Origin: Diphasiastrum complanatum
Lineage: Eukaryota; Streptophyta; Lycopodiopsida; Lycopodiales; Lycopodiaceae
DNA: 64,000 nucleotides
Reading direction: 5' to 3'
NCBI GenBank assembly: GCA_029204225.1
Contig: CM055111.1
Location: 42,286,815 to 42,350,814, forward strand
Below, piece after piece: positions 11,161 to 42,645 of the stretch. How positions within the stretch are numbered: position 1 is the stretch's first letter; the number at the start of each line of letters is the position of its first letter. The notes under the pieces were generated by a model. It was given only the letters and a program-made list of their open reading frames with translations, ran no database searches and was not told the origin of the DNA. Both the position numbers and the translations under genes were made by a program.

Positions 11161-11392
11161 TTGGCAAGATTTGATTGTAAGTAGATTTCACATCTTATCT
11201 TCATTCCAACTTTGTGAGGAGTGCTAGAACTGAAATTATAAGCCCATTTGTTGGATTAGAAATCTAATTTGAGTGAAACACTACAAGAAAGAGACCTTAG
11301 TGAGTTTCTCGAGACAATCAAATCCCATTTCTTGGCAAGATTTGTTTGAAAGTAGTTTTCACTTCATCTTATCTTCATTCCAGCTTTGTGAG
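11161..11392 (+). repeat. Duplication in the N1 gag leader
   Basis: A ~60 base segment (TTGGCAAGATTTG ... TTCCAACTTTGTGAGG) at 11,161-11,219 recurs at about 11,331-11,392, where it runs into gag. The offset is about 170 bases. Confidence 0.75.
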
Positions 11393-20472: not shown

Positions 20473-21877
20473 TTCCTTGAAACTTGGAAGAAGCAACATA
20501 GATATAATAGATTTCATAACATTCACTCAAGTTCTCCTATGAAGATCTGTAAGGCATTATTTTTTCCATTGCAGCACTAATTATATGCCTAATAACATCA
20601 TATGCCATCTTGTTTAATATGAGGGGAGACCAGTGGTGAAGACTTCAAAGCATTGATGTATTTCTCCTCGATGATCAAATTCATGCAATGGCATCTACCA
20701 TCCATCATAACATTGTTTTGGTCGTCACGAGTGCAGATGCTGCTATAGGGGGAGGAAATGATAAATGCTCAAACTTGTGAATGATGCCAATTATTTTAAG
20801 GCATATATGTAACAATAACCAATACTGAAATGCATGAGAAACATGAATTACAAAAAAGAAAGCTCCCAAGTCAAGATGACACACAAGCACGCTTCCGACA
20901 TTCTTTACAAAAAAGATCTTATCTTTTTGACTCAATGCAATACAACTTATTCTGCTTGAACTTGAATGCTTTTGCAATTTCAAGGACATTTGAGGCCTGG
21001 TTAATAAATCGATACCACAGGTCAATTTGTCTAATGACTCTCATGTTTTAGTAACAAATCATAGTTACTCATGGTTTGTTTCTTTAAATAACTCAAAAAA
21101 TTCTCAGGATGTTAGGATGCATATGTATTTTTCTAATGATTGAGGCATCATCAAAGAAAAGCTTCAGTTTTGAAAAGAGAAGTTCTAAAGGCATGATCAC
21201 TAGCCCTACAAATAGCACATCAGCTTATCAATTTTGAGTTCTTTAGGGTTCATATGTCCCCCGAGTTTTACCCAGGTATATTCATATTTTTCATAAATAC
21301 AATGCCCCTTGGTTCATGCCAATGGAGGGAATGGGATATCAAACCCATGGCCTCATTTTTGAAAGTCGAGGGCCCCACTGCTTGCCCTAGTACCCATTGG
21401 CAGTGTCATTATAAGGAGGTGGCTTTCCTTGAAAGGCTGTGAGAGTTCTTCTGGAATCACCAAAAGTTCTTCATAAAATACATGTAGGTCCTTACAGGAG
21501 TTTGTCCTTGAGAGGCATAAATTGAACAGCTGTTATGAAGTCATCAAGGAGGTTTGCATGAAGAAAAACTGTGATCATTTTAATGGACAAGTAGCCCTTT
21601 TAGGTAGCATATCATTAAAAATGTGCATCTCCAGAGAGTCATTAGCAGAACATCGCCTACTCAACCACTCCACAAAAATAACGGTCCACCATCAAAGGTG
21701 AGGTGTGGCACAAAAGCTCTCTGGAGCAAACTGTATCCAGAATAATTCAAGAGATGACAAATGAGAATGCAGTGGATCAGCCTGCTGTCATGGAGCTTAC
21801 AGTAGTGCTGTGATGCAGCAATGTAGTCCAGCATCCATTATACAGCTCAGAATATCCGGATCGAATGTTGTTGCTCA
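20473..21877. other. Downstream flank and probable 3' UTR of the DUF3067 gene
   Basis: No coding domain. On the minus strand this follows the TAA stop of the DUF3067 gene at 21,878. Its right part (to roughly 21,400) is likely 3' UTR, though no clear AATAAA site is seen. The rest is plain intergenic DNA up to the Copia-B target duplication. Confidence 0.4.
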
Positions 21878-21943
21878 TTACCTGTATATCCATTCATTAG
21901 CTCGGCCTCCTGTGTCATCCAGGTCGATGAAAATGCTCACAGC
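21878..21943 (-). CDS. DUF3067 gene, last coding exon
   Basis: Follows acceptor GATGTTCAG. Encodes AVSIFIDLDDTGGRANEWIY plus Arg and the TAA stop (21,880-21,878). The preceding exon ends in RPRIGK, giving the RPRxGKAVSI text typical of the family. Confidence 0.87.
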   Translation of the reverse strand, partial: AVSIFIDLDDTGGRANEWIYR

Positions 21944-23708
21944 CTGAACATCAGGATCAGGTTTAGCTAACTTGAATTCGCAAAATCCTACTCACTAGAA
22001 ATCAAACTTCATAATCTACCATATCATCAACTAGCTTCAAAAGTGGAAATTCTATCTAGCTATTTCAAAGCTTTAACAATCAAACGTTGAAATTGCTGAT
22101 GTAGAGACCTTCATGATGTACAGTGTTCCTAACAAAAGATTCCCTAGATTGTGCAACATAAAATTAATACTGCAGCTTGTTGACTGGAGTAATACTGTAA
22201 TTAGATCTTTGATGGATCCATTCAAGTCCAGAACTTGCAACTACTTGAATATACGACTGGGAATAGGTAAATGAATCTGCAATAGATACATCATTCTAGA
22301 GAATAAAATAGCTTTCTGGTTTCTTTATGTAATTACATAGCATAAGGACAGCTGAGTTTGGCAGCTAAATTTTGCCATATACAATGATCAGGAGGTTAAG
22401 CCCTTGTAGTCCATACGATCTGACCAGAGTTTGAGCCTTCACTCCAATCCTTGGCAAATAAGAATAATAAATAAATTCGGGACTTGATTAACTGCTAATT
22501 GCAAAAATTCAGAAGCTGGTGATGCTTTGTAATACTACTGGAGTTGCACTTTCCATTCCGGAATTAGGGTTTCCCGTAACACATTTTTTTTTTTGGGTGC
22601 CAGTATGGATATCAGATTAAAGGTGTTTTCAAGAGCAATTCACTTATCTAGTTTGCTCGGAGTTCCAAGAGAAGTGCGGTCCAATTTTGGGCCATTAAGT
22701 GATTCTTTATCGAACATCTCTATTTCTGTATTATGTGAAATGAAATCACATGGAACCGTATTGAATGACAGCAAACTGACAACAAATATGAAGCATAAGC
22801 ACCCATCTCAGAAGCATAAGCATAAGTATTCCTTCAAACAGTCGTGTGCGTGTGAGTTCTGTGTCGGGAGTCTCTAATCTTCTTTCACATGCCATCTATA
22901 ACAGTCTATTGTTGTTTCAACTCCAATAATCCAAGATTGTAATGATTCCATCATGTCCACCATCCAATTAGGGTTTAGTTAGTATTAAACTATCAAAAAA
23001 ACAAAAAAAATTGGCCATTAGTCTTTTCTCCACCAAAAAAAAAAATTAATTTGCGATCCGGGTCGCGGATCGCCGACATTCTGGAACGCACGTTCCAGAA
23101 CGTTTTTGCAGCGGATCGTGATCCGCTGCAACTTTGTAGCAGACGTTTAAGACTGGGAAGTAGAGCACTAGCATTCACCATTGCATCTTAGGCCCATCTG
23201 AATTTACCCTCAAAAATTTGTCATTGAACTAAAAATAGTTTTCAGCAAAGAGATGGACCATATGCAAACTTCCTGGCTATATATTAAGTTTTCTCTCTAT
23301 TCATTCCTACCTTAACATTATCTACTGAATAAACTTCTAGAGATGAAAGGTAGCTAAGCCGCCTAGAAACGTCTAAGCAGCTTGACACCACAATGACTAA
23401 ATAAACTAGACATTGGCCTTGTTAACTAAAAACAAGAAAAAATAATATTGTTGATAAACAGCAGTGACCAATGCTTAGTAGTACCCAACCCTGCATCTAT
23501 TATGCCTGCAGCCTTTTTAAAAACAGAATTATGATAGTATTTGCTAAACACAGTGGATACTATTAATGTTTTATCTCCCCAAATTCTTGAGTGGTTTTAA
23601 GGGCAAGATACTTCATACATAGAGTGACCACAAGTAAGGTCATTACTACTGTTAGGAATTCAGAGGTAGGCTACCAAATTAGAAATTGGAACTTCGTATA
23701 GACTCTTG

Positions 23709-23754
<46 letters not shown>

Positions 23755-26700
23755 ACACACACACCTTCCCAATCCGTGGCCTTTCTTTTGTCTTTGAAAG
23801 GCTATTTCGAACATATGAGACTGCTCCCCAGCATCTTAAATTGTTTGCAACATCATCTAATCTTAGAAGATACTGTTCTTCTGTCAAAGGAAATGATCGC
23901 TGCACAAACAATCAAGCCGAAACTCATCTTAGTAGCACAAGTTACATTGACAATTATGCCAAGGACAAAACTGAAGTATCAAAAAGGACAAAAAAAATAC
24001 ACAAGTTGCCATAGTTCCATTCTTTTGGCCTCACAAGGATGTTAGGCCACATTTGAATCTTAAGCATGTTACCTCAATCAGGACAACAATGAAAAAAAAA
24101 CTAGAAAGTCTACTCCCTTTTATGTTCTGTTCCATCCCACTGTATCACAGCATTTCTAGGAAATCCTACATCAATTAGAAAATGGATGACTATTTTTGCC
24201 CTATGAGGTTTTGTGCTTGCATGCATCAGTTAAGAAAAGCACGAGAACTAAGACTGTGTACACATCGTGAGAGCCATAGTAGAAGGCTAGAAGCTCCTCA
24301 AAAAAAAGAAAAATTGGGCTGGGTGTATCATTCCATACTTGCAAAACGAGCTTAAATTTTTTTTTTGTCCTGGTAGCAGATTTTTTCAAAGGGCGAGCTT
24401 TAGGAAACACTTTCATGGGCCCCAACAAGAGTAGATAATTGTGGAGAGCAAAGACATTCCTCTATTGCAAATCTCACTGAAAAAAAAATCATTCAGCATG
24501 TTTACATTAGAGGGAGAAAATTGTTTCATACTGCTAGGTGATTTTACCGGGATTACGGATCTACATCGAACTCCATATTTGTGTTCCACTATGATGAATT
24601 TTTCATGATTATGAGTTTGTAAGTATCTATCTATCTATCTATCTATCTATATATAATGATGACCTATAGAAGATATGGAGGAGAGAATGATTTCCGTTCG
24701 TGGGGAATGAAGTATCCCATTATCTATTAATGTTTATTTGCACCTCTAATGTTGGTTTGGCCATGCATGTGAACTATTTTATGGGCCATTTCTAGTATAT
24801 CAAAGTCAAAGTCCTAAAGTCAAATTAATTACTCTTGCATGTAGGAGGTTGCACTCGTTCTAGAGTAGAACATGATTTTTCAATTAGAAATTTAATAACT
24901 TTACCCAAAATAGAGAGCAACTATAGTAATCAGCTTTTTGCTTTTTGCTAAGGACTAGAAAAATTATAAAAAGAGGGCTGGCGCCCCAGCTCCATTCATT
25001 CCATTGTAGAGAGTATGCTCATTCTTCAATGAATTTGAGTTCTCTTTAATCTCTTATGTTGATCTTGATTGGTGGGTCATCATGCAGGTATTGCAGATAT
25101 TTGTTTAGTGACTAAGTTATGGCATGAAAGGTTTGGACATTTGAATTTCAAAAGTCTACAAGTCTTCAGGAAATACCATATGGTTACTAGTTTACCTCAA
25201 GTTGTTTATGATCACAACTTTTGTGAGGGCTGTGTCTTAGGGAAACATCATATGAAGAAATTCGAGTCTAGTACTTATAGGGTGAGAAATGTTCTAGAAC
25301 TTGTTCATAGAAATATGTGTGGTCCTATGAAAATTCAGTCTTATGGGGGAGCAAGTTACTTTATGGTGTTTGCTGATAATTATTCTAGGACATAGTCGCA
25401 GCGAATTGCGGTTCGAACCGCCGAACCGTTCAGATTCGGTTCCTGTTTCGAACCTTTTTTGCCAAAAGAAAAAAAAAAACAATAACAAACGGTTCGAATT
25501 GGCCCCCAATTCGAACCATACAGGCCGGTTCAAATCAGATTGAATTGGATCGAATCGGCCAATTAGAATCGACGTGCAACTATGTTCTACGAAGAATGTG
25601 GGTATAACTTCTCAAGTATAAGGGTGAGGCATTCAAGTTCACATGGTTTAAGACACAGGTGGAGAAAGAAACAAATAGACAGATAAAGATACTTCGTTTG
25701 GATAAAGGGGGACAATATCTTTCTACCATAGTTGCCCGTTCCGGAACTGAATGGGACCCCCAAAAAATTTTAAAAATATGTATTTTTTTATTAAAAAAAA
25801 AAACTGCTTTTTGAAGTTCCTTCTTCTTTTTCATAGTTGCTTTGATGCACATGTATTTCAGTTGTTGGTCCAGTTTCTTGCCCCTATCTAAGTCTCTAAG
25901 TATGAGAGCAGTAGGAAGCTCCATTTTTTAGGTCTAACACACAACCTTTTCAACATGTGGCCTTAGGTGCTCTTCAAGACACATTTTAAGCCTCAAATGT
26001 AGAGACACTAATAGAACTTTGATATTATTATACAAATACCCTATCAACCACAACATTTACTTGTGAACAAGGTTTTACTGAATCAAGATTCTTTCCTAAA
26101 AGAATAGAAATTCCCTTTTGAAAAGTTTTGATCTATCTCAAACATTAAAGAATCAAAACCATTTGCTTATGGACCCGGTTAATCACATGTTGTTCTACCC
26201 TATTTAACTCTATGGTGGAAAATGGATCAAGGTCATATTTAAGTTTGAATCTCAGTTATAATTTTAACGGGACCATGGTTGTATGGAGTTCAAATCATGT
26301 CTACATTTAACTTTGGATTATAGTAATATTTGAGTTTGAATTTGCCAAATGTAGTCAATTATTGTGTGCACTTGAAAGTCATCACTTGCAAGTGAACATT
26401 CTATATTAACACTTGTAAATCTGCAGACTATAAAAGAACACAAAAAAATCCGCAGAACTGGATAAACAATGGATGAAAATTAAAACCGATAAGTCGATTA
26501 GTAAGAAGGAGACTAATCCCGCAGATAGAGCGGGGGTGGGGTGAAGGCCGGATAGGGCCGACTTGGCAAGCGTAGCTACTCCTACTGGCTGCGGTCTAAT
26601 TCTCTTCCAAGCCCCAAATCATCTCTAACGATCTGTTGTAAAAATTAAACTTATAAAACAGCAGATAATGTTGAGTAGAGCAATAGTGAAAATATATCTA

Positions 26701-29700
26701 CTGCTAGCATGCATTCAAACATTACAAATCATACACATTACAGAACAAAGTATTGTGGAAATCGCTTTAATTATCAGAACTGAATTTACAATATTTTCTT
26801 GAGCGTTGTCTGTTTTCTAGATCAACACATTGGCGCAATAGAGGTGTTCTCTCTCATGTGTAATGCGACTGTAAAGCTCACCATCGAGCTATATCAAACT
26901 CTTACAGTTTTGTCTATATCTGTATCCGTGACTGTATCAATCTGTATGTATATTCTCTGATCTATCGTTGATCCTTTTTATGTGATCAATCCAAAGAACT
27001 GATTAAGTTAAAAGATCTAATCAAAAGAAATGCATTAGGCTTAATCGAAACTAATTTTGGTTTCTTGTCGCTGTCCTCCATGCATCAGCCACTCTATGCC
27101 CGTTACACTCCGCCTTCACGCTGCAGACCTTCACATTTTGCTAAAAGACACCTTCAGGATTTTAAAGGCACCTTCGCATTTTTCGGAAGGCTTTTATAAG
27201 GCAGTTTCGCATTTTGCCGAAGGGCGAAAAACCCAAAGGTATGCCAAAAAATATTTCTAAGGCATTTACGAGGCAGTGTCGCTTCTTCTCAAAATGCAAA
27301 AAATGCGACAGTGTCGGGCCAATTGGCCAAAATTATTTTCGAAGTGTTTTTGATTTAGTGATGCATTTTTCTCATGACCCAAAAATGCGAACTGTGCGAC
27401 GAAACAGTTCAAAAATGCAGATTGTGCGAAACATAGTTCAAAATGCAACAGTATATAGCTTCTCTTCGTCAAGATCTTTGTCAATCTGCAATCCTAGGTA
27501 GCATCTTGCTTCCCCTAGGTCTGATATTTCAAAATGCTGAGAAGTATCATGCTTCACCTGAGCAATGAGATTGTCGCTTCTGGACAGAATCAAAGTGTCA
27601 TCAACGTAGACAACAATTATTATGATTTCTCCATCTGTGACCTTTGTATAGACATTGTAGTCGGGCATCAATGGTTGAAATCCTAAGGATCTGAGGGTGT
27701 GATCCTTCTTCTTATACCACTGTCTGGCAGACTGCTTCAGTCCATATATGCTTCTTTGCATTCGGCAGGCGTAGTTGGCAAAGCGTGAGTAGATGAATCC
27801 TGGTGGTTGGTCCATGTAGACTTCTTTATTCAACTCGCCATGTAAGAAGGCGGTCTTCTCATCCACTGTGGATCTTGAGACTGTATGTTGCTGCATATGC
27901 AAATAGTAGGCATAAGGACGAATGCTTTATGACTGGAGAAAAGGTTTCAGTATAGTCAACACCATACTTCTGAGAGAAACCTTTTGTTACCAATCTGGCC
28001 TTGTACTTTGATAAGTTGCCATCAGGTCCATACTTATATTTGAAAACTCACTTGTATTTTACAGTCTTCCTGTCTGCTGGTAAGTAAATCATGTTAAATA
28101 CAAGATAAATCACTATTTTCTAGTTACATTTATCATTTTTTTGTGGAACAATTGGCATTTGAAAATTAGGCTTATTCTTTCCTAGGAACCCTGATTTTGA
28201 ACTCTGCCTGATTCTCAAGCTACAATTGGATCTTATGCCTTCCTAATACTCCAAACCCATACAACACCATATAGATGAAAAAAAGAAAAAAAGAAAACCT
28301 TTCCGACCTAGTACGTTCTGGAACAAACGGTATTGTATGTACATTACGTTTTGACCCAAAAGCGTTGGAACGAGTTTCCAAGCTTTCTACAGAGTTTTAG
28401 GTGCTTTGCAAGGATCGTGGCAAGTACGGAAACGCCTCAACAAAATGGAGTTGCAAAAAGAAAGAATCAGTCTATTGTAGAAACTGCAAGGAGCATGCTT
28501 AAAAGTAAGAAATTTCCGAATATGTTTTGGGTGAAGCAGTTCAAATAGCGGTTTATCTTTTGAATCAAAATCCTACAAAAGTTGTAGAGAATCGGACTCC
28601 AGAGGAAGCTTACAAGGGTTGAAAACCTGACGTAAGTCATTTGAGGGTTTTTGGAAGTATTGCATATGTTCACATACCAAAGGATTTAAGGAGCAAATTG
28701 GATTCAACGGCTACTAAGTGTTTATTTCTTGGATATGATAGTCAAGAGAAGGGATAAAGGTTGTATGACTTGAAGAGTAAGAAAATTATCATAAGTAGGG
28801 ATGTGATCTTTGATGAGAATGGATCTCATAAAGATAAAGAAATATCTTATGATAGGAAGCAAGATGGAGGAATTCCTATCTTGTGTGACGAGTCATTACA
28901 GGAGCCTAAGTCGACACATATGACACATATGACGCCTACACCAATTCAAGTACCTAGAGTGACCATGGTTGAGAAAGGAAAAAGGAAGGAGAGATCAAGT
29001 ACATGGAATACTTATCACCTCTGACTTCACCAGGTAGGAAGCATGGAATATTCAACAAATGGACGTTAAGAGTGCATTCTTTAATAGATTTAAAGATTTC
29101 TAGAGGAGGAAGTCTACATGGTGCAGCCAGAGGGATACATTGTAGCAGGACAAAAAGACAAGGTTTGCAAGTTGGACAAGGCATTATATGGACTTAAGCA
29201 ACACCCAGGGCATGGTACACGAGGATTGACACATACTTTGAGGAGCTTGGTTTTTGAAGGAGTAGTTCAAAGCCTGGACTTAATGTTTTGATCAGGGATG
29301 GTCATCTTGTTATTGTAGTGATGTTCATAGGTTTGGATCGTGATTTGATTCATAATATTAAAAAAGATCTCTCATTAGAGTTTGATATGAAAGATTTTGG
29401 CTCGCTACAATACTTTCTTGACATTGAGGTATGGAGAGTACCACATGGACTATTTATTTCTCAATCTAAGTATGCTCATGAACTTCTTGAAAAGTTCAAT
29501 ATGTTAGAGTGCAAGCCTATTTCTACACCATATGGTAGTGGATGTGAGCTTACTCAAGTTGAGGATGATCAAGATGTAGATGGGAAGTTATATAGAAAGC
29601 TTGTTGGAAGCTTAATTTATCTAACTACTCTGAGACCAGATATTGCATATGCTGTTAGATGGTTAGTCAGTTTATGGCTAAGCAGATTCACTAGAAAGCT

Positions 29701-32700
29701 GTTAAGCGAGTAATCGAATATATCAAGGGTACTTTGAGGTTTGGTATTTTCTATGGAAGACGGGATTTTTTGAGGGATATGTGGATGTTGATTGGGTTGG
29801 AGATGCAGAAGATCGAAGATCTACTACAAGTTATGTCTTTAGTCTCGGTTCGAGTTCTATATCTTGAAGTTCAAAGAAGTAGCATACTATTGCATCATCA
29901 TCTATAGAGGCAAGAGTACCAAGCTACTACGAGTGCAGCAAGTGAAGCAATATGGTTACGAAGGATTCTACAAGATCCTCATATGGTACATGGTACACCT
30001 ACATTACTTCAATGTGATAATCAAAGTTGTATTAAATTGGAGAAGAATCCAATTGTTCACAGCAAGACCAAGCACATCGAAATACAACAACACTTCATCA
30101 GAGAGAAGATTCAAAGTGGTAAAGTAGAGATTATTTATTGCCCTACAAAAGAGCAAGTTGCATATAACTTTACCAAAGTACTGGGCAAAGAAAAGTTTCA
30201 GAAGTTTAGAGAACTAGGAGTAATAGATAACAAGGTAAACATTAAGGGGGTGTTAGAAATTAATGTTTATTTCACCTCTAATGTTGGTTTGGCCATGCCT
30301 ACGAGCTATTGTAGGGGCCATTTCTATTTTTAGTATACCAAAGTCAAAGTCCTAAAGTCAAATTAATTAGTCTTGCATGTAGGAGGGCACACTAGTTCTA
30401 GAATCTACATGATTTTTCACTTAGAAATCTAGTAAGGGTCTTTACCCAAAATAGAGAGCAACTATAGTAATCAACTTTTTGCTTTATTCTTAATGCTTTT
30501 AGCTTTTGCCAAGGACTAGAGAAATTATATAAGGATGGCTGGCACCCCACCTCCATTCATTCCATTGTAGGTAGCTATGCTCATTCTTCAATTAATCTAA
30601 GTTCTATTTAATCTCTTTTGTTGATCTTAATTGGTGTGTGTGAGGGCTAATATGATTAGTTCACTCCTACCTTGAATTTGAGCATCAAATTCCAAGACTA
30701 TTTATACGGTATATCATTGATTGACATGACCATTTATTAATATGGGACCAAGGGTCGTTCTTATTGATTAGGTTACTAACCATGTAAGAGAATGTAAACC
30801 CACTCTAGGACCCAAGAAACCCTAACTAGGTGTCTCCATACACTATAAATAGAGCTAGCTCCACTTACTCCATAGTTTAGTACTTGGTGCTTTCACTCCT
30901 TTGTAGGAAGTTCTACAAAAGCTCTTTGTGGGAGATATGGTACTCGTTGTAGCCATTGATGTTCTTTCACTGTTCTTAGTTGGTGATTGCTTCACAGCAA
31001 GCGACAATAGGCCCTGACAACAAGAACATCCCTTCCACATAAGCTGAGGATTGGAGTTTGAAACTGTAATGGGATTCATTCATCCACATAAGTTGAGGAT
31101 TGGAGTTTGGAACCGTAATGGGATTCATTCATCCACAATTGAGGATCTTTTGGATTTCATTAACAGGGGGATATACTATTGTTAGATGCATGAGAGTCAT
31201 GAGAGAGGTTTACCAAAGTTCCCTAGGTTTTGCTGGTGTTCATATAGAGCAAAGACACAATCGACGGATGCTCTTTCTATATATAGCAAGACTTAATTTA
31301 CAGATCTTCGGCCCTAGCAGAAACCTTCCATTTGCTTGTGATATCATAGTTTTCAAAGCACACTATGCATATTTCTATTGACGGTGGGAAGTAGCATGCT
31401 TAGTCCATGTTTCGCACATCAAGAGTTCATATTTGGCAATGATGTGTTGCCATTCTCATGACATTCCATATAAATGATAGCACATCTCCTGGCAGAGACC
31501 TTTCATTTGCATGTGGTATCATAGTTTTTATAGAACACTTATGCATATTTCTATTGATGGTAAGAAGTAATGTTGCTAGTGCATGTTTCATACATCAACA
31601 ACTTCAATTTGACAATGATGAGTTCGCCACTCTCACAACACTCCATACAAGTGATAGCAAGTCCCTCTATACTCAGTGATTGTGTTATGATATACCTCGG
31701 CCATGATGCTCATACAACATGTTCAAGAGGAGCTTGTGTTTGTTGGTCCCATCTACAATTCCAACAATAAATCATCCAAAAGCCTTCACAATTCATTCAC
31801 AAGAGAAAGTTTGACTAAGATTACCTTTACTAACACCCATGGAGACCAACATGGTCTATAAGACCAAATTCCAATACAAATACCAAAGTCTTAGAGAATT
31901 TTGAAACAACACGAAGTAATACTATTCTTAAGATCAACTACTAATTAGAAGAGTGGCAAAATTTTATGTCTAGCAAAAGCTTTAAAAAGCAAACTACCAA
32001 CCATGCTAAGATTATCACGACTGAAGACTCATTGGAAAGTCCCTTAAAAATCTTTTTGAAGTAGTTGTAAGCAGCCACATTACAAAATATGGTGAAATTT
32101 CGTTTCCACTTCCTCATTGTTGTAAAGAAAGCATGTCCATGCCTCCCAAGGGGGGCACTTCGAACTGCACTATCATATCGTTTCCGATTGAAGTTCATCT
32201 GGACCCAAGAAATGCCCTGGTTTTTCTTCATGGAAATTCTATTTCAATTTGAGGAAGCATGAGACTTTAGACAACCACCATTGATAGTCTATCAACTTGT
32301 GCAAAGTCAACTCTGATTATTCATGAATTGAGTTACAGTGCCTAGAGCTTAAGAGATAATTGCTTTGCTGATAGTAATATAGTTGAGGCAGCTAAGCAAA
32401 CATCTAGAAACAGTCTCGTTAAGTTTATTTTCAGCATAAAAAATCTTCAAATATTTATTTGTTACACTTCCAAATTTCAAACTTACCTGCTACAACTTAA
32501 TGCAGTCAAGACTCAAGACTATTAAATACATATTATAGGTCAAGACTCCAGTTTACTGTTTTACAGCCTACAGCTTTATGTAGTCTAAATTCCAGACTAA
32601 ATACAGCAAGAACTCCAAAAGCATTTCCTAAAAACTTGCTGATATGCTCTTCCTCTTCAAGGCAATTGATTAAGCACAGAAACAATAAAGTAAAAAGTGT

Positions 32701-33011
32701 TACTCTCAACTGATATATTAATAAATCTTTTACTAGACTCAAAGCCAGCAAAAGAACTACCATACCTGAGAACTTAATGAAGGAAAAGGCAAACCTGTTC
32801 ACGATACTTCCACATGACATTCATAGCCAATAACTGACGTCCCATAAACTCCTGAAATAGCCATGAAGGCAAAAATATATCAACCACATATGACAAAAAA
32901 CTGAATGTGTGGCATGCATAAGTGGTAGTTGGCTATCAATCCAAATGGAAACTTTACTCAACAAATGTGGCAAATAACTCTTTTTTTTTTTTTTGGGGGG
33001 GGGGGGGAATT

Positions 33012-33092
<81 letters not shown>

Positions 33093-33670
33093 TATTAATG
33101 TCCTTCCCATGCCAAAAGGCATATAATACTAGTAAATGTACATGTCAAGCAAGTGGTAACAGTGTGAGCGTATGAAACGTCTCTAAAACAGTAACAGAAA
33201 GGAACAACATATCTAATACTATGAACTGAAATAAATGAGATGAGATAGATATATAGGAGCATAAATGAGGTATATCATTATCATCATGTCTTGTTGCTGC
33301 TATAGAAGGATGTGATATGAGCTGCAGCATGAGATAACTCAGGTAATTGCTGATGTCGTCTAGGAGGATGAGATGAGTATCTCCTCATGATAGGTCGGAT
33401 AACTCAAGCTGCAACATGACTATAAGTGGTGCGCAGCCTCTGCTCTCAATGGATAGGTACGTCGTCATCATCCTCATCATCACTAGACTTGGAATCCCAT
33501 TGCGGTCTTCTCCTAGAGAAGAAAGAGGTAATCTGAAGCTGAACGCTAAGATGCCTCTGCTGAGCTATTTGACATAGATCTCGTTGTAGTAGGAACATCT
33601 CTCATATCATTAAGTGCAACACAGCCGGAGTCCTCATATGCTATGAGTGATCGAAGTATGGTCGTTCTCC

Positions 33671-33712
<42 letters not shown>

Positions 33713-36700
33713 TTGAGCTTTATTGATGTCTATTAAGTACCAAAGGTGCATAAAACTGAGATGTACATGTTGTGGGAGCGTAAAATGTGTCCAATAAGAA
33801 ATATAATTTTAAGTAAAAGCTGAAACTGAATACGAGACTAAACTTGGAACATAAACTGAATCTAAGACTGACTCTTAGCTCAAAAAGTTAAAACAAAGGC
33901 ATAAAGCCATAAAAACATCATACCAATCTCTTCTACTTCAATGAACTGAATAAAGTCTTGATAGATGCTAATGGTTGAGCTCTATGGTGTGAGGAACATG
34001 GTGTCTGTTGGAGGGTTTGCAGATCCCAAGGCAACCCTAACCCTAGTTAATAAGTGAGAGGGATTTGGCACCTTGCGTGTGTAAGTCCAACCCGATGATC
34101 ACATAGTTATTTGATTGATTAGTTAAAAGTCAATAAAAGGACTTTATGCCTTTTTGCGGGACTTTTAATGTCGCAGGGCCTAAATGTCAAGTTAGTGAAT
34201 AAAGTTGGGTTTCCCTCCAAATTTGATGGTTCCCACACTTTTTTAAATTTGAATAAAAAGAGAGGCAAGACTGGACCAATAGGATTCAGAGGCCAGGGTC
34301 CTCCTCTCTACTATAAGAAGGGACCAACTTGAGTTGCTCCTCATGTTCATTTCCACATTTCAATAAAGCAGATTGGTTCTCTTCAGAAATGGATTGATGA
34401 ATGTCCTTGCTCTTCTTCTTTCCTTCTCCATCTCTCATGCTTTCTTTGTATTTTGCTAATTATTGGATCTGAATGTTATTGGGATTGAGTGTTATTATAC
34501 TTTTTATGGGAGAGAAAGAGAGAGAGAAAGAGTAAGCTATCTTTGTTGTGGATCGTAGTGTTAATGGATCTTAGTGTTAACGAGTAGGGTTAATGGATGT
34601 AGAGTTAGATTTAGATCTTCCATTCATGCTGAAATTTGAACTAAACTATCGCTCTCATGGGAACGAACCTACGCGTGATAACTAACTCCGTCTCTATGAT
34701 GCTAGATTGACTAGATCTTGGATTCAGGTTAGGCAAGGAAAGAAACCCACTACAATTTTGGCACCGTTGCCAAGGAGCTACGCCAATTTTTCAGTTTGCA
34801 GCATGATTGTTGGATGGTTAGCTTGCATTAGGCATCTTGTCGTGACATGAATAGTGTTAGATCTGCATTTTAGGGTTAGTTTGGGATTGATTTTGCTTGA
34901 TTTGAGTGGATTTGCTTGTTTGAAATCTAATTTGATTGTTTAAACAGGGAAAGCTATTCAGATCACCAATCTTAAGATCCATTTGGATCTGAGATATAAG
35001 AGAAAATAACAAAAATCGGTCAAATCTGCCAGATTTGGTCAAAAAGAGGCAAAAAGCGTCATCAGAGCTTAGAACTTTTTACCCTCTTTCAGAAAACCTT
35101 CGCCAAGTTGCAGACACCTTCGGTTTTGTTCACAGAACCTTCAGTTTGAAGGGCGAAGATTAATTCCCAGCAGATTTCCAGAAACATCAAAAAAACCGTC
35201 AAAAAACACCAAAAAATCATCAAAACCCTAAAAATACAGAAAAAGAACCTTCGCCCGATTCACTGTGCACAGGTGTGATTCAGATCTATCTACTGCCAGG
35301 TCAGCGAAGAATAATACCAAAAATAGAAAGGGTTTCAGAGGATCAGTTGTCATATTGCCATATTTTTACCAAAAAAGTCACTTTTTTGCAAAATTACTGA
35401 TCAGATCATAGAAAATCTTGAATTTTACCCTCGAGAACCATCAGAAACTATATTTTCTTGTGTCATAAACCTTCGCCAGTTTTTCCAATTGTATCTGTGT
35501 CAGATCTTTCACCTGAGAGGTCGGCAAAGGTTATTTTTCAAGAAATCATCAAAAAAAATGTTCAGAGAGTTTTTTGCCCAAAATAGCACTATTGAACCTT
35601 TGCCGAGCCAATCTTTGCCTAGTGAACCTTCGCCAGACCTATTTTAAGTTTCTGATTTTCCAGATCAAGTCTCTGTCAAAATTTGGATCAAATCTGATAT
35701 ATTTTGAATTGGATTCTGAGAGATTTATCAGTTTTGAGAAGTATCGATTGATCGAATCTCGAAAACTTTTTCATGATATAGAATCAGATTCTTGAAAAAC
35801 GGAATAGATCTAGCAGATCTGATCTGAGATAGTTGTGATTAAAAAATCTAGATCCAATCTCATTGTCTGCTTAATCTAAATTTGTAAAGATGGCTGCCCC
35901 TGGAGCTGCTCCTGGAGGTGCTCCACAGGAAGTCAATCCAATTATTGTTAGAAGAGCACCCCGTTTAGATCTACCCAAATATAATGGATTAACAGATCCA
36001 GTTAGATTTCTTCAGATCTATGCTGAATCATGTGAAGTCTATGGTGAGAATTATCCTCAAGATAAACTTCAGCTGTTTCCTATGGCCTTAACAGGCGCAG
36101 CACAAGATTGGTACTATAACCAAGACGAAACTGAGCGTACAGATTGGGAGGTTGTTAAGCGAGCCCTTATCGCACGGTTCAAACCGCGAAAGTTTATGGA
36201 AGACCCTTTCCTACTTTTAAGTAAAATTAAAATGGGAAAGCGGGAAATGGTTCGAGATGACATTGAACGGGTGAAACGTCTTAGATCTGAATGCGAACCT
36301 GAGCTGATTAACGAAAATGCCATGATTATGTGGTTTTTGTCAGGTCTACCTAAACGGATCAGACGTGAGTTGAAACGCCATAATGAGTATGCACTCTTGC
36401 AAAATGCCATGGACGATGCAATTCGGGAGGAGGATGAAGATTCAGATGAGGAGCCAAATATCAGTATGTTGCCTTATATAGCAGGGCAGACTACTACGAC
36501 ATCCACCACTATTGCATCAACGAATGCCAATGCTACTGCAGAAATGATGCGCCTTGGAAAATTTCCACGAGGAAACAAACAAGGAACTTGAAAAGCTTGC
36601 AAAGACTTTTCCTACCAGGGAAAATGTCTGGTGTTCTATTTGTGCAGGAAATCACACAGTGAACGAGTGTCCTCAATTGAAAAAACGAATGGAACTCAGC

Positions 36701-39700
36701 GTTTGCCATCTGTGTAATTCACCTGATCATGAGACTGCTTTTTGCAACTTCAACCCTCGGATAATTCAACAACGGTATGCCCATATGGGATATCGAGAAC
36801 CACAGTATGGAGGTAATCCAGCAGTAAGACCGCGACAATCTGCTCTTGGATACCCGGAACGTTTAGCTTTACTTGCCCCACCAAAGCACTCCGCTCCTCC
36901 TGCCAATTTGATGGAACCAGAACCTTACGGAAGTGCTGAGCAATGGAACTATGGTAATGATCAGGAAGGTGGATCTTCAGAACAATATGCCATTTATGCT
37001 GCCACTCAACAACAAGCTTCTAGAAATTGGACCAGAGCACCACTTGGATGCTTTGCATGTGGAGAAAATCACAGAGTTGCAGAATGTCCACATAAAGGGA
37101 AATTTTGTACCATTCTGTCGTGATTGTGGTTATGGGCATTGCTATAAAGACTGTCCAGCAAGACCGAAGCCACCACCAGCTACAGCACCTGTAAATTTGA
37201 TAACAATCAAGCAAAGACCAGTAGCTCAGAATAAACCAAGTGCACCCTTGATGGTGGTCACCAGAGCACAGAAGCAAAAAGAACCAGTAGTGATCCAGTA
37301 CCTGCTGATTCTATACCATTGAACGATACACCAACAGCATCGGGAGTCTATCCAAATCTTAATGCAGAAAAACGAAGATATCAGAATATGAGGCAGTGGA
37401 TTAAACATCTGCAAGAAGAAGAGGAGCTTGAAGCTGCTAAATCAACAGCTGAAGTTCGGTCTTCACCATTGCAGCCTTCAAGAAATTTACGTACGGATAT
37501 GAATGATCAGTTACATCATCTTGAAGAACCCTTCAAGATGACTGAACCAGAAGCACCGCAAACAGAACTACTCATATACATTTTGTCTAGTAAGATCAAT
37601 ATTTCATTGGGAGAGTTCCTGAAGTTGGTGCCAAAAGCAAAAGAAGTCTTAGCGCAAAAGTTAGCTCAAGAAGAACCAGAAGTCCATCAGGAGCCACTTT
37701 TTTGTGCTGGATTTGAAAAATCTAACGAAGCACTCCATGTTGGAGCCGCTTGGGAAAGTGAACAAAAGAATATCACTCTGCCGATACAGCATAGACAATT
37801 TCCTAAAGAAGCAGCCGTGATAGATGGCGGTTCAGGAGTTAACCTGATCTCTACAAAGCTATGTGCAAAATGGGGCCTTACAAAGACCAAACCTGCTACT
37901 TTTGCTATTAAGCTAGCTGATCAAACGACAGTTCGTCCACGAGGAATGGTGGAAGATATACCTGTCAGGATTGCAGGAGTACAGTTCGTCATTACTTTCG
38001 TAGTGATGGACTTACCAGAAGCGCCTAATGTTTACCGAGTTCTATTGGGACGTCCATGGTTACGAGTTGCGCAAGTAATTCATAACTAGGGTACCGGAAA
38101 AATCACTTTTGAAAATCATGAACGTGCAGTTAAAATTGATCCTACAACTTGGACTATCAAACCAATGGTTCAAAAAGAGGATGACAATTCGTCAACAACG
38201 GATCACACTTGTGACTAACCACAGAAAAATTTGGGAGTTCACTACGATTCTCAAACAGATACGGTCAATTGGAATGAAGCTCTTGCAACGATTGACTGTC
38301 CAGCAGGATATATGTGTCAACAAGATAATCAATCAGATTTGAGCGAGATTTCCTTATGAATCTTTTAGAATTATAAAATATACCCAGTCATACTTTAAAA
38401 TCTTTGGGTGATCTCTTAATATTAGCATAATGGTTAGCTCTATCTTGAGCACTATGAATACTCTCACGAGCTAAATGCAACATTTCTTGCATTTCATGCA
38501 GCAAATCTCCAACCTTGTGTTCTCTACTATTACAAGCAAATTCTATCAAAGGGATGTAATCTTCCCAATGAGATTTCCTATGAAAAACATGTCCTCAACA
38601 TATTTTCCATAGTCTGAATAGTGCTTTCATTCTATCCATCTGATTCAAGACGATCAGTAAAACTAAAACTAAGAGAAGTCTCAAGTTTATGGAAAACTAC
38701 AAACCTGACATGACCTGTGACTTTTAGATCTCTATAACTAATGATATCACTAGACAGTCCATATAACGTAAATAATCTTTCAACAAAAATCTGCTTAGTT
38801 CACTTAAGTGGAATGAATGTAGCTAACTTATCAAAGAGAATCACTTTTTGGGAAGTGCAACTAGAAAATCCATAAATATGTGCTCGCATCACTTATCAAG
38901 GATGTCTAAGGGATGTAATAAACCATTAATTAGCCTTGAAGCATTTAGCTTTAGCTAGTTGATAAAATTTACATATTAACACATAAGACTCAACAAATGG
39001 TTTGGGTCTTGGCCAATAGAACTCTCTTCTGACCAAGTCCAAAGTCCTATGTATACCTAGATGACTCGCACAAGGTAACCTTGTGTGGGGGGTGTGTCAT
39101 GACATTCAAACAGAACTTTTCTCTTCAAAGCACCATCCCTTGATATACAAATATCTCCCTTTCAAGAATAACAATCCATTTTGAATGTTGTATTGTTCCA
39201 CAATCTTCTTATCTTTCATATCCAATTGAGAACCCTATAAACCAATTTCAAGCTCATTCTCAGTTTAGTTTAAACAATCTTTCATATCCGACCATAATGA
39301 GAATCATTTTCACACAATCCTCTGAACAACAGATATAGATTTGTAAAATTCTGAGTGAATGTAAGTTCATTTAACCCACCAATCCAACTTGATTAGAGTT
39401 GCCTTTTATATATTGAATCTCATGATCAAACTCTTGCATCACCTCAGCTCATCAGGCTTTCGAATCTCTCAGATCACGTTGATTATAAAAATAATTAAAA
39501 GGCTAGTGATCTGTATACACTATATACTTACTACCATACAAGTAGTGTCTCCAGGTTTTACGTGCATGAGTCATAGCAAATAATACTTGGACCTCAGTTG
39601 TATAACACAACTGAGGTCCAGTGAAAATTCTTGCTCCTATCAATCTATAATAGATCTGCTCCAATTGTAATATCACTTGCGTCGATTCTCAAGATGTAAG

Positions 39701-42645
39701 GCTGGTTTGGATTTGCAATCTATAACACGGAAGCAAAAACAATCAAGCTTTTGAGTTTCCCAAAACACTAATTCATTTCCCCGTTCCATACAATAAGTGG
39801 ACTAGGCCATTTTTCTTCTTCTTTGTATTAATTCTACCCATGATTGCGCTCGCTTGGATGGTTTTTTTAATCAAATTTTGTTTATATGTGATGTTCAAGA
39901 TAACTAAACTTCATATTGTCTGTAAAATCTTCTAGACTACGAAAAAGATGTGCAAGTTTGTAGTGAAAGAACTTCTGACATGTGAATCTTGTAAAAAAAA
40001 TTACAGCTTTTTTCAACACAACTTTCCAGAACGTGAGGGTCCGGAATGACGTTCCAGTGCAATTTAGCATAGGTTAACATAAATGGAGCAAGATAATGAT
40101 GATGAAGACGGTGCGGCAGAAGTTATTATGAGCACATGATATATGCGCTGCGTTCCAGAACATAGAGTTTCAATCACGTTCCGGAACTGCTTGTTCCGAA
40201 AATTTCAGAAAGTCCCGTTCCATAACGTGTTTTTTTTTTTGTTTTTTTTTTTGGGGGGGGGTGTCGGTCATTTTTTTACATGTCTTAGAGATGGAAAAAA
40301 GCCATAAAAAGGCATCTAAAAGCACATTTAAATACATTGTACCAAGTACCATATTCTAAGCACTTATCTTCTGAATGTTTAAAAAATTCACCTGATAAAA
40401 GGTATTTAAATTCCAGAACAGACTTATGAAGACACTAGGCCTTTTTTTTTTGAAGTCATGAATCCCCAATTTAAAAAAGAAAACCATTTCTAGATGGAAA
40501 CAATTTTCACCAAGATGAGATCAAACCTTAAGTTTAGAATCTAGTACCCAATCCGCCTTAAAAAACAAAAAGCTCCCATCATGCCACCTTCCTTTCTTTA
40601 ACATATAATCGACAATTTTGCATGAATAATTTTAGCTCCAAGGAAGATTGAAGAATAGAAACTAACGACAATGAGAAATAATAGTTTAGGCTGACTGCTG
40701 ATTAACAAAAGAAGAAAGAAGAATCTCATTTGATAAGTTTTTTATGAGATTCCTCCATAATCAAGACAAACTTGTCTCAAGAACTAGTCTAAGACTAGAT
40801 GGTAACACTTCAAAGTTCGTATTATGATAGCATGCAATACCCAAAAACATTAATATGCTACACGTGAATTAGTGTACCACCATAAGAAAACCACCAGGCA
40901 TAGATTTTGTTTTTTTGGGGTTTCAACATTCCGGAACGCTCATTCCGGAATGCCGTTCTGATGCAACTTAGCTGCACATCAAAGAGAAAGAGGGTGTGGG
41001 ATTGAAGACTATGATGGAATTTGGGAAATGATCTCATGTTTTGTGAAAAGAAAGGAGGCATGTGACGAAGCAAGAGGTTTACAAAGAGACTTTGCAACTG
41101 ATCTCGACATGCATTTTTGAAATATCAACGTTGTAATTGGAGGTGGAAAATGATAGATAAGTGATCATGAAAAAAGCGAACAGTATGAAGATACACAAGA
41201 CTTTGAAATGAGCAGTTATAAACCACAGGAATTAAAAAAGTGGATGAAAGGGATTGCAGGCATTATGCATTTGGGCTTTTATAACACAGGCATAGTACTT
41301 ATTCAGTGTGAAGAAATAAGATGTCGGCATTCCTATCATTAAAAGAAATGGCCTTGCTCAGCTTCCAGCCTGGATGATTGAATTGAAGTCAAATAGGTGT
41401 GACTGCAACAGTATTTTTTATTGAAGACCTTCTCTTTGCATACATGCTGTAACTATTGTCTTGAAAGAGAGAACTGTAAAGAAAAATACATCTTTGACCT
41501 CCGAAATTCTGTCATTGTAAGAGGTATCCATTGTTTCAATTTTGTACAGGGTTGCATTGATTTGAGGAAAAAATTTGTGGAAGAGGTTTTTCAGAAGTTA
41601 AATGAAAAAACAAAAACCCAAGATTACCATCCTAAACCATGTGGATTGTTCCAGCACGCTCACTTGCTAATGTTCACAGTAGCCACAAAAAAAGTTTTCT
41701 TTCAAGATCACTGCAAAAGTCTAACCATATGTAACAGTAACATGCAATTTGGTAAATACCTATCCCATTTACTTTAATTGTCTTTCCATCTATCTAGAAG
41801 TAGTTCCAGATAGATGGTGCAACGAACATATCAAGTTTTGACATTAATATATCTACTCGTCACATTCAGATTTCAAACTACCAGAAAAACTGTAAATGCT
41901 CTTAGGAGTTTACCAAGCATCAACTTGTAGAAACTGCTTTGAATAGCTATTCTACTTTCAGAAGGCATTCTAAGCTGCTCCTCAAAGATATTCAACTTTC
42001 AGAGAAGATTCCAAACTTGCCCTTTTTATTAGCTGGACATCGTAGGACCTTCCATACTTCTGTCTGATGAGTGTAGCCAGCTCTTTGCCACCAAAAAAAT
42101 CATCATTGCCATCTATGATGTTCTCCAAACGACTCCTAAATGAGTCAGCAGGTGTCTACAAAACATCAATTACCAAAATCATTTTCAAAGTGTCATGTCA
42201 AAGATAAGAATGACGCAGTTGCATAATCTTCAAAGTACATAACCACCTGATCAGCTCAGAAATTGAATGATTACTGTATTCTAATTTCTTGCAATACAAT
42301 TCAGATACGCAATGCAAGAGTATTTCTAGAATGCAATTAAGGTGCATTGTTAGTGTTAAGCCTCACTTCATCAGTACTGCCACTTTGTGAACTGTCCTCC
42401 TCTTCATCACCTTTTTCATTTTCATCTGGTTCCTCTGTCCCAGAAAGTGCATACATTGGTGTTATAAGAGGTTTTCGCTTCCAAAAAAACCTTTCTCTAG
42501 CTTGAGGCATTCTTAACTTCGATAACTGTGTCCTGGGGCGAAATATGCTCTTCGAATGAGAAATGTGGTGACTGTACAGCCCAGATTCTTCCTGGAGCAC
42601 TTTCATGTGAATGGTACTCTGGAACCCCACACTTGAAGATGCCAT
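21878..42645 (-). CDS. DUF3067-family, probably plastid-targeted protein (5 coding exons)
   Basis: A host gene deduced from five exons on the minus strand: 42,645-42,367, 42,155-42,021, 32,851-32,795, 23,899-23,765 and 21,943-21,878. All junctions are phase 0 and the sum is 223 codons plus TAA. Residues 1-65 look like a chloroplast transit peptide (starts MASSS; Ser, His and basic residues; possible cleavage near MYA-LSG), then an acidic linker (DENEKGDEEED). From about residue 112 the text GGKELATLIRQKYGRSYDVQ, MNVMWKYREQ, SFPLTEEQYLLRLDDVANNL, RPRIGKAVSIFIDL and ANEWIYR follows the DUF3067 family as I know it from cyanobacteria and plants. Its function is unknown to me. I chose ATG 42,645 for its ATGGC context; ATG 42,657 is in the same frame. 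Introns 2 and 3 hold most of the transposons between 24.7 and 40 kb. No stop or frameshift is seen, so the gene may be functional. Confidence 0.85.
23052..23131. repeat. Cluster of three palindromes
   Basis: GCGATCCG...CGGATCGC (5-base spacer), CTGGAACG-CA-CGTTCCAG and GCAGCGGATC-GT-GATCCGCTGC lie side by side. Similar GTTCC/GGAAC palindromes followed by GTGCAA or ATGCAACTTAGC occur near 40.03 and 40.93 kb, so I read this as a short inverted-repeat (MITE-like) family. Confidence 0.7.
23711..23764. repeat. (AG)20(AC)7 microsatellite at a splice site
   Basis: AG array at 23,711-23,750, then AC to 23,764. On the minus strand it is (GT)7(CT)20, beginning at the first base of intron 4. Confidence 0.95.
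23765..23899 (-). CDS. DUF3067 gene, coding exon 4
   Basis: Acceptor TTGTGCAG, donor AAG/GTGTGT. Forty-five codons from RSFPLTEEQYLLRLDD through LRCWGAVSYVRNSLSKTK to ERPRIGK. This is the most conserved part of the DUF3067 domain. Confidence 0.88.
24624..24650. repeat. (ATCT)n microsatellite
   Basis: About six TATC/ATCT units followed by TATATA, inside intron 3. Confidence 0.9.
24726..25070 (+). repeat. Copia-D 5' LTR (first bases lost)
   Basis: Matches the 3' LTR from ATTAATGTTTATTT through CCAAAATAGAGAGCAACTAT to the CCATTCATTCCATTGTAG region and GTTGATCTTGATTGG. The first ~10 bases (TGTTAGAA) are missing. Confidence 0.85.
25095..25718 (+). pseudogene. Copia-D GAG-pre-integrase and integrase start
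   Basis: KLWHERFGHLNFKSLQVF and CEGCVLGKHHMKKFES form the zinc-binding site; VLELVHRNMCGPMKIQS and FADNYSR open the integrase core (His-Arg replaces the usual His-x-Asp, HRN for HSD). After the small hAT insertion come YKGEAFKFTWFKTQVEKETN and KILRLDKGGQYLS, where the second catalytic Asp region (RSDRGGE in relatives) reads RLDKGGQ. Confidence 0.82.
25391..25584. mobile_element. 194 bp hAT-type MITE
   Basis: Flanked by an 8 bp target duplication with one mismatch (TTCTAGGA at 25,383-25,390; TTCTACGA at 25,585-25,592). The ends are inverted: CATAGTCGCAGCG on the left, CATAGTTGCACGT as the complement of the right. The interior is rich in GGTTCGAACC and related words. 8 bp duplications mark the hAT superfamily. 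There is no coding capacity. Confidence 0.85.
27100..27440. repeat. ACCTTCG / AAATGCGAC-rich LTR-like piece
   Basis: Repeats GGCACCTTCGCATTTTTCGG and AAAAATGCGACAGTGTCG-like words, resembling the minisatellite and following region of the Copia-B LTR. It abuts the minus-strand Copia RT at 27,440 and may be a fragment of an LTR of that element. Confidence 0.55.
27440..28210 (-). pseudogene. Ty1/Copia RT fragment inside the hAT insertion
   Basis: Minus strand: YKYGPDGNLSKYKARLVTKG, FSQKYGVDYTETFSPVIK, then TAFLHGELNKEVYMDQPPGF, YGLKQSARQWYKK, and an intact VVYVDDTLIL box (about 27,590-27,620), DLGEARCYLGLQI. The Trp of the usual KWVF motif is TGA near 28,050. The RT is cut off after the catalytic region; it is joined to the LTR-like piece instead of RNase H. 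Confidence 0.88.
28383..29030 (+). pseudogene. Copia-D integrase C-terminal part
   Basis: Continues the Copia-D integrase: TPQQNGVAKRKNQSIVETAR, SMLKSKKFPNMFW, then in shifted frames NPTKVVENRTPEEAYKG, SHLRVFGSIAYVHIPKDLRS, KCLFLGYDSQEKG, and DLKSKKIIISRDVIFDENGS. Stops and frameshifts break it. Confidence 0.85.
29031..30240 (+). pseudogene. Copia-D RT and RNase H remnant
   Basis: RT text is fragmentary (EEVYMVQPEGY-like in a shifted frame at 29,104-29,136, PRAWYTRIDTYF), and the YVDD box is degraded to VVMFIGL. From 29,380: DFGSLQYFLDIEVWR, FISQSKYAHELLEKFNMLEC, LYRKLVGSLIYLTTLRPDIA. RNase H follows with frameshifts: LLQCDNQSCIKLEKNPIVH, SKTKHIEIQQHFIREKI. It ends before the PPT ATTAAGGGGG (30,241-30,250). 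Confidence 0.85.
30251..30636 (+). repeat. Copia-D 3' LTR
   Basis: Begins TGTTAGAAATTAATG after the PPT. TATATAA promoter box at 30,526-30,532. The right border is uncertain. Confidence 0.82.
31035..31148. repeat. 49 bp tandem repeat, ~2.2 copies
   Basis: CCACATAAG-TGAGGATTGGAG starts copies at 31,035 and 31,084; a partial third starts at 31,133. Confidence 0.9.
31312..31665. repeat. 175 bp direct duplication (diverged)
   Basis: GCAGAAACCTTCCATTTGC at 31,317 recurs as GCAGAGACCTTTCATTTGC at 31,492; the following text (TATGCATATTTCTATTGA) keeps step. Confidence 0.85.
32795..32851 (-). CDS. DUF3067 gene, coding exon 3
   Basis: Acceptor CTATTTCAG, donor CAG/GTTTGC. Nineteen codons, EFMGRQLLAMNVMWKYREQ, matching the family's VMWKYLEQ-type segment directly before SFPLTEE. 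Confidence 0.87.
32981..33089. repeat. T14-G13 run and (GA)37 array
   Basis: A T run (32,981-32,994) and a G run (32,995-33,007), then GA units 33,016-33,089. The GA array is the tail of a repeat described in the next entry. Confidence 0.9.
33016..33200 (-). mobile_element. Retroposon-like repeat with (TC)n tail, copy 1
   Basis: Read on the minus strand it ends TACATGTACATTT ... GGCAT ... GACATTAATAAAGC followed by (TC)n. Copy 2 at 33,672-33,810 has the same text before its TC tail. A shared 3' end of AATAAAGC plus a simple-repeat tail suggests a LINE or SINE family inserted by retroposition. The 5' ends are unclear. Confidence 0.5.
33672..33810 (-). mobile_element. Retroposon-like repeat with (TC)n tail, copy 2
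   Basis: The GA array 33,672-33,709 is followed (plus strand) by GCGCTTGAGCTTTATTGATG, then ACCAAAGGTGCATAAAACTG and ATGTACATGT, paralleling copy 1. Confidence 0.5.
34006..34754 (+). repeat. Gypsy-A1 5' LTR
   Basis: Begins TGTTGGAGGG, ends ACCCACTACA. TATA-like box TATAAG at 34,313-34,318 and AATAAAG about 50 bases later. No second copy is in the window, so the ends rest on the TG...CA form and on the adjacent PBS. Confidence 0.65.
34758..34772 (+). other. Gypsy-A1 primer-binding site
   Basis: TTGGCACCGTTGCC near the LTR end resembles the TGGCGCCGTTGCC primer site of Athila-like Gypsy elements (Asp-tRNA type). Confidence 0.7.
34773..35889 (+). other. Gypsy-A1 leader
   Basis: Untranslated DNA between PBS and gag. 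It contains many AACCTTCGCC words, for example near 35,098, 35,249, 35,468 and 35,620. Confidence 0.7.
35890..37130 (+). pseudogene. Gypsy-A1 gag with zinc knuckles
   Basis: The first frame (233 codons from ATG 35,890) has the retrotransposon gag domain: RFLQIYAESCEVYGE, WYYNQDETERTDWEVVKRAL, FKPRKFMEDPFLLLSKIKMG, LSGLPKRIRRELKRHNEYAL. A +1 shift near 36,555 moves to a frame with KELEKLAKTFPTRENVWCSI-C and knuckle motifs CSICAGNHTVNEC (36,632-36,670), CHLCNSPDHETAFC (36,706-36,747) and CFACGENHRVAEC. It is the best preserved gag of this lineage in the window. Confidence 0.87.
37131..38360 (+). pseudogene. Gypsy-A1 linker and protease
   Basis: An open frame of 256 codons from 37,319 contains EAPQTELLIYILSSKINISL, then the retropepsin-like AAVIDGGSGVNLISTKL (about 37,807-37,857) and a flap-like ADQTTVRPRG, ending LLGRPWLRVAQVIHN at a TAG that replaces Trp. 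Text after the stop (GKITFENHERAVKI, WNEALATIDCPAGY) matches the region before RT in the sister copy at 55.2-55.4 kb. DGG replaces the usual DTG/DSG in both copies, so it is a lineage trait and not decay. Confidence 0.82.
38370..39750 (-). pseudogene. Ty3/Gypsy RNase H and integrase remnant (Gypsy-F)
   Basis: Heavily broken minus-strand pol, in order: RNase H NPNQPYILRIDASDITIG (about 39,700) and FAMTHARKTWRHYLYGSKYI with VYTDH (about 39,590-39,500); integrase zinc region ASHLGIHRTLDLVRREFYWP (about 39,065-39,005); core CEHIFMDFLVALPK (about 38,880); TDRLESDG; ENMLRTCF; WEDYIPLIEFACNS; and the C-terminal LLHEMQEMLHLARESIHSAQ with DRANHYANIKRSP (38,505-38,405). The motif wording differs from Gypsy-A. 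It is antisense to A1 but sense to the host gene, in intron 2. Confidence 0.85.
39980..40262. repeat. GTTCC/GGAAC palindromic repeat and T/G runs
   Basis: Contains CCAGAACGTGAGGGTCCGG, ACGTTCCAGTGCAATTTAGC, CACGTTCCGGAACTGC and CCGTTCCATAACG, then T runs broken by G (40,230-40,252) and a G run to 40,261. Related to 23,052-23,131 and 40,925-40,985. Confidence 0.6.
40263..42020. other. Proximal part of intron 2
   Basis: No retroelement domain recognised. A further palindromic copy, CATTCCGGAACGCTCATTCC with ATGCAACTTAGC, lies at about 40,928-40,975. A 118-codon open frame at 41,421-41,777 has no motif. Confidence 0.5.
42021..42155 (-). CDS. DUF3067 gene, coding exon 2
   Basis: Acceptor GTTTTGTAG. 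Forty-five codons: TPADSFRSRLENIIDG, FFGGKELATLIRQKYG, RSYDVQLIKR. The donor is GCAAGT, a GC-type splice donor: the only alternative, GT three bases on, would break the frame into exon 3. Confidence 0.85.
42367..42645 (-). CDS. DUF3067 gene, first coding exon
   Basis: The open part of the exon runs from acceptor TATCTCAG (exon starts 42,669) to donor GAA/GTGAGG. From ATG 42,645: MASSSVGFQSTIHMKV, a basic Ser/His/Arg-rich stretch, FFWKRKPLITPMYALSG and the acidic DENEKGDEEEDSSQSGS. Upstream of the acceptor there is presumably a 5' UTR intron. Confidence 0.8.

What the first reader, a model, noticed from the sequence alone, without database searches (positions are those of the whole stretch)
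21878..42645. Transposon-inflated DUF3067 gene assembled from five tiny exons
Seen: five minus-strand exons, all phase 0, no stop, with correct splice acceptors and a continuous family-like protein of 223 residues. Known: DUF3067 proteins occur in cyanobacteria and plastid-bearing eukaryotes, with no function I know. Inferred: the coding part, 672 bp with the stop codon, is spread over nearly 21 kb because introns 2 and 3 have taken in Gypsy, Copia and hAT elements. The exons are so short that standard frame-based annotation would miss the gene.
Basis: partly seen in the sequence, partly recalled or inferred. Interest (0 to 1): 0.78.

Follow-up and report, generated by a model that had tools for sequence, protein, structure and literature searches.

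The report
Annotated clubmoss DUF3067 chloroplast-type gene
The five exons form a real, apparently single-copy plant gene with long transposon-bearing introns that is already in public databases; its cyanobacterial relatives mostly sit beside genes of the photosynthetic cytochrome b6f complex, which suggests a testable job for a protein family of unknown function.

Summary
Five minus-strand, phase-0 exons (42645-42367, 42155-42021, 32851-32795, 23899-23765, 21943-21878) join to 672 nt and 223 residues and match Pfam DUF3067 at 121 bits. A search of the 1.74-Gb genome with the product finds five places, one per exon, all here. Introns 2 and 3 (9,169 and 8,895 nt) carry Gypsy and Copia pieces; no hAT domain was seen.

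The claim that annotation would miss the gene is wrong: it is deposited as Diphasiastrum complanatum O6H91_20G067000. Intron 2 has a GC donor.

Function lead: of 194 genomes of the cyanobacterial phylum, 88 have DUF3067 and 89 cytochrome f over cut-off, 88 shared. In 63 of 88 DUF3067 lies under 5 kb from petA, always divergent; petC lies between in all 20 regions read of those 63. I infer, not show, a role in cytochrome b6f biogenesis. As a gene it is ordinary.

The parts
42367..42657 (-). Exon 1: N-terminal extension and acidic linker.
   Evidence: genome match E 1.6e-54 only here
42021..42155 (-). Exon 2: start of the DUF3067 domain; donor AGG|GCAAGT (GC-AG intron)
   Evidence: E 3.7e-21
32852..42020 (-). 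Intron 2, 9169 nt, holding a plus-strand Gypsy gag frame (35875-36588) and a weak, below-cut-off aspartyl-protease match (37235-38086)
32795..32851 (-). Exon 3, 57 nt, 19 codons
   Evidence: E 0.0018
23900..32794 (-). Intron 3, 8895 nt, holding a Copia element with LTRs at 24726-25077 and 30259-30639 (90% identical outside gaps) and an opposite-strand Copia RT piece 27441-27926
23765..23899 (-). Exon 4; its donor runs into a GT/CT microsatellite
   Evidence: PF11267 56.6 bits, E 4.8e-23
21878..21943 (-).
   Evidence: E 1.2e-4
21661..21730 (-). Exon 6 of the deposited model O6H91_20G067000 only: with the end of exon 5 it gives a 23-residue tail that no other of the 120 listed homologs shares
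   Evidence: (rebuilds P0001 exactly)

Best explanation
This is the single-copy nuclear gene of the clubmoss Diphasiastrum complanatum for a DUF3067 protein: a variable N-terminal extension encoded by exon 1 (probably a chloroplast transit peptide) and a conserved domain of about 105 residues encoded by exons 2-5. Its length comes largely from ordinary retrotransposon insertions in introns 2 and 3, which are spliced out. The most likely product is the 223- or 227-residue form that ends EWIYR; the deposited form with the extra tail is an alternative 3' splice or a prediction artefact. The domain most likely helps to make the cytochrome b6f complex, acting on the Rieske protein (PetC) and/or cytochrome f (PetA) in the cytoplasm of cyanobacteria and the stroma of plastids. 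Shown: the gene, its lack of a second copy in the assembly, its family, and the co-occurrence and neighbour link in cyanobacteria. Inferred: plastid import, splicing, and the b6f role. My odds: real gene about 0.98, plastid protein about 0.9, b6f biogenesis about 0.5.
For: Exon structure and frame; Pfam 121.3 bits; homology to NMR structure 2LJW, Nostoc Alr2454; identity to a deposited D. complanatum protein up to the last splice; no second place in the genome. Function: of 194 genomes of the cyanobacterial phylum, 88 have DUF3067 over the cut-off and 89 have cytochrome f (PF01333) over its cut-off; the 88 are all among the 89, and none of the other 105 has DUF3067 (ten of the 105 have weak PF01333 matches below the cut-off). 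In 63 of 88 DUF3067 is under 5 kb from petA, 63 of 63 divergent. In 20 of 20 regions picked from those 63, petC lies between the two (petC, petA and tatC identities checked by Pfam on L007, petC also on L119). In those 20 regions the only other real-gene family shared by more than 5 is tatC (10 of 20); the two families at 12 are frames antisense to petC and petA. tatC is within 5 kb of DUF3067 in 37 of 88, 37 of 37 on the opposite strand. Gene order is not frozen: in 18 regions read of the 25 unlinked genomes, only two families are shared by 3 or more: a GAF/PAS histidine kinase (6 of 18) and tatC (3 of 18). That the Rieske protein is a Tat substrate is recalled.
Against: Co-occurrence with cytochrome f fits any role in oxygenic photosynthesis equally well; no other photosynthesis gene was run as a control. 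Divergent neighbours may share only a promoter region. 25 of 88 genomes lack the linkage (12 on one contig far apart, 13 on different contigs; some of the 13 may be assembly breaks). One genome (G148) has petC and petA, with an amidase gene upstream, and no DUF3067 match, and G142 has only a decayed-looking copy, so the protein is not strictly needed. No RNA evidence was available and no targeting predictor was run. The fold search lists no solved structure outside its own family with a convincing score, so structure gives no hint of mechanism. The genomes are related to each other; the Fisher value (1.4e-55) ignores this.
Confidence: 0.55

Rival explanations
1. DUF3067 serves photosynthesis or plastid biology in general (for example photosystem assembly or pigment metabolism), and its place beside petC-petA reflects only a shared regulatory region.
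For: The same co-occurrence would be expected for any core photosynthesis gene; 25 of 88 genomes lack the linkage to petA.
Against: In the 18 unlinked regions read, no family other than a GAF/PAS histidine kinase (6 of 18) and tatC (3 of 18) is shared by 3 or more, so no other partner replaces petC/petA; 7 of the 25 unlinked genomes were not read.
Confidence: 0.35
2. The 249-residue deposited model is the main product: the TAA at 21880-21878 is removed by splicing at CAG|GTAATG and the protein ends in a clubmoss-specific 23-residue tail.
For: The deposited protein is rebuilt exactly by this junction; the donor looks strong by eye and the intron is 151 nt.
Against: 117 of 120 listed homologs end at EWI[YN][RK]; the exceptions besides this one (P0034, P0038) have different tails. 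What evidence the annotators used is not known to me.
Confidence: 0.2
3. The exons are a decayed or silent copy and another locus makes the protein.
For: The introns are long and carry transposon pieces.
Against: The frame is open and the residues invariant in 35 aligned plant-type sequences are kept; no other place in the genome search.
Confidence: 0.02

Closest known systems
Diphasiastrum complanatum O6H91_20G067000 (deposited 249-aa hypothetical protein, P0001)
   Different: Starts four codons upstream and carries a sixth exon with a 23-residue tail instead of Arg-stop
Alr2454 of Nostoc PCC 7120 (PDB 2LJW), DUF3067
   Same: Same domain: E 6.5e-23 over query residues 116-221
   Different: 110-residue chain without the N-terminal extension; shorter loop before VMWK
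DEIP1, assembly factor of the cytochrome b6f complex in Arabidopsis (PMC9279372; passages seen by term search only)
   Same: Only the proposed role, b6f biogenesis
   Different: Another protein (AT2G27290), said there to interact with PetA and PetB; no sequence relation was tested

Membership tests
Pfam PF11267 (DUF3067) | Score over curated cut-off across the whole profile | tested here: met
   121.3 bits against a cut-off of 25, profile 1-98 of 98
Pfam PF11267 (DUF3067) | Residues conserved among plant and cyanobacterial members | tested here: met
   P0001 is a row of A1 (35 plant-type sequences) and of A4 (47 plant and Nostocales-type sequences, 22 invariant columns)
Pfam PF11267 (DUF3067) | Fold of 2LJW | tested here: inconclusive
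Nucleus-encoded plastid protein | N-terminal transit peptide and import | not testable with these tools
   Plant members have a variable N-terminal extension that the cyanobacterial member lacks; no predictor, no localisation data
Cytochrome b6f biogenesis factor | Loss lowers b6f accumulation | not testable with these tools
   Only co-occurrence and neighbourhood
hAT transposon in introns 2 or 3 | hAT transposase or dimerisation domain | tested here: inconclusive
   None in 146 of 156 stop-free frames of at least 46 aa in 21944-42020; non-autonomous or badly decayed copies would not show

The most novel reading that the evidence does not exclude
DUF3067 is an overlooked, nearly universal biogenesis factor of the cytochrome b6f complex, working on the Rieske protein (perhaps on its cofactor loading, or its hand-over to the Tat translocase), kept beside petC-petA-tatC in most cyanobacteria tested and as a single nuclear gene in this clubmoss.
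Probability: 0.45. Interest if true: 0.62.

Novelty: already known. Interest (0 to 1): 0.33.

Why it matters
The gene itself is a routine example of a small plant gene stretched by retrotransposons and is already in the databases. What may matter is the family: a protein of unknown function with a solved fold, found in 88 of 89 cytochrome f-bearing genomes of the sample and in 63 of 88 divergent from petC-petA, gives a direct, cheap test of a b6f role. The case also flags a doubtful 3' end in a public gene model.

Full report
What was checked. The window is bases 42,286,815-42,350,814 of contig C20 in a 1.74-Gb assembly. The best protein match (456 found, 120 listed) is named Diphasiastrum complanatum O6H91_20G067000 and is listed at 100% identity and coverage (in fact the last residue of the query differs). 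The window is therefore from that clubmoss or a very near relative.

The exons. All acceptors are AG. The donor of intron 4 runs straight into a GT/CT repeat. The protein scores 121.3 bits with PF11267 over the full profile. A search of the whole genome with the product (11 candidates scored) gives five matches at E <= 1, one per exon, all here; the Pfam model alone finds one place, exon 4. There is no second copy in this assembly to the sensitivity of these searches.

Already annotated. P0001 is 249 aa. A script rebuilt it letter for letter from the window by starting at 42657, ending exon 5 at 21882 and joining a sixth exon, 21730-21661. Of the 120 homologs listed, 117 end at EWI[YN][RK]; the exceptions are P0001 itself, P0034 (moss Ceratodon) and P0038 (Cephalotus), with different tails.

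The introns. Intron 3 holds a Copia element on the plus strand with two LTRs, 24726-25077 and 30259-30639, 90% identical outside gaps, with pre-integrase and reverse-transcriptase pieces and an SH3-like match just below its cut-off, and a Copia reverse-transcriptase piece on the other strand (27441-27926). Intron 2 holds a Gypsy gag and a below-cut-off protease match. Among 126 further frames in 21944-42020 there are matches to Copia RT (2 frames), integrase zinc-binding and RNase H families (one frame each) but no hAT domain (which names families and not frames). So 'Gypsy and Copia' is right and 'hAT' is unproven.

Function. No paper in the library holds the words DUF3067, PF11267 or Alr2454. 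The only solved relative by sequence is 2LJW. I therefore used gene neighbourhood. In 80 Nostocales loci (80 kept of 135 confirmed, up to 6 kb each side) relatives of the Nostoc neighbours lie in the same locus: petC in 80 of 80, petA in 79, tatC in 61 (some loci are cut by contig ends). Pfam confirms the three names on L007: TM_PetC and Rieske, apocytochrome f, TatC. These loci are close kin, so I sampled the phylum: 194 genomes, drawn by the tool from a larger group. DUF3067 passes its cut-off in 88 and cytochrome f in 89, 88 shared. The 106 genomes without DUF3067 are G148 and 105 without cytochrome f over cut-off; what those 105 are I did not test. In 63 of 88 the two genes lie under 5 kb apart (61 of 63 with 1.28-1.98 kb between the matched stretches), in all 63 divergent. 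I read 20 of the 63 regions: petC lies between DUF3067 and petA in 20 of 20 and tatC is near in 10 of 20. Clustering all frames of at least 80 aa in these 20 regions, only DUF3067, petC and petA are shared by all; next come two frame families antisense to petC and petA (12 each), tatC (10), another frame family overlapping DUF3067 (5), and the rest at 4 or fewer. tatC is within 5 kb of DUF3067 in 37 of 88, all on the opposite strand. Of the 25 unlinked genomes I read 18: besides DUF3067 only a GAF/PAS histidine kinase (6) and tatC (3) are shared by 3 or more.

Results against a strict need: G148 has petC and petA with an amidase gene upstream and no DUF3067 match; G142 has a decayed-looking copy between petC and tatC (35 bits, stops inside), which could also be an assembly fault. 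I counted G142 among the 88 because it passes the cut-off.

Mechanism. Shown: linkage and co-occurrence. Inferred: a cytoplasmic/stromal helper of Rieske or cytochrome f maturation. The Rieske protein is carried across the membrane by Tat (recalled), which would make petC-tatC-DUF3067 a coherent set. A general photosynthesis role remains possible at about one in three.

Verdict. The finding is a correct reading of an ordinary, already annotated gene. Its worth lies in the doubtful deposited 3' end and in the family's b6f link.

Noticed in passing
window 21882-21878: The TAA stop of the family-like reading frame lies inside a splice donor (CAG|GTAATG) that the deposited gene model uses; splicing would replace the last residue and stop with a 23-residue tail.
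   Followed up: partly
window 42021-42020: Intron 2 has a GC donor (AGG|GCAAGT).
   Followed up: no
window 23711-23764: The donor of intron 4 is the first GT of a GT/CT microsatellite, so repeat slippage could shift the usable donor.
   Followed up: no
L138 (G142), between petC and tatC, about 6990-7460: A decayed-looking DUF3067 copy with stops in its best frame (35 bits) in a genome that keeps petC, petA and tatC.
   Followed up: partly
L137 (G148): petC and petA present with an amidase gene upstream and no DUF3067 match in the genome; the only such case of 89.
   Followed up: partly
window 2570-3076, 11346-11825, 16502-17122, 51148-51861 (+); 53543-54160 (-): Outside the gene: Copia gag, integrase-region and RT pieces, and an RVT_1 reverse transcriptase piece.
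   Followed up: no
P0010, P0068 and P0091: Some DUF3067 proteins carry misleading deposited names ('synaptotagmin-5-like', 'Protease precursor', 'Protease').
   Followed up: no
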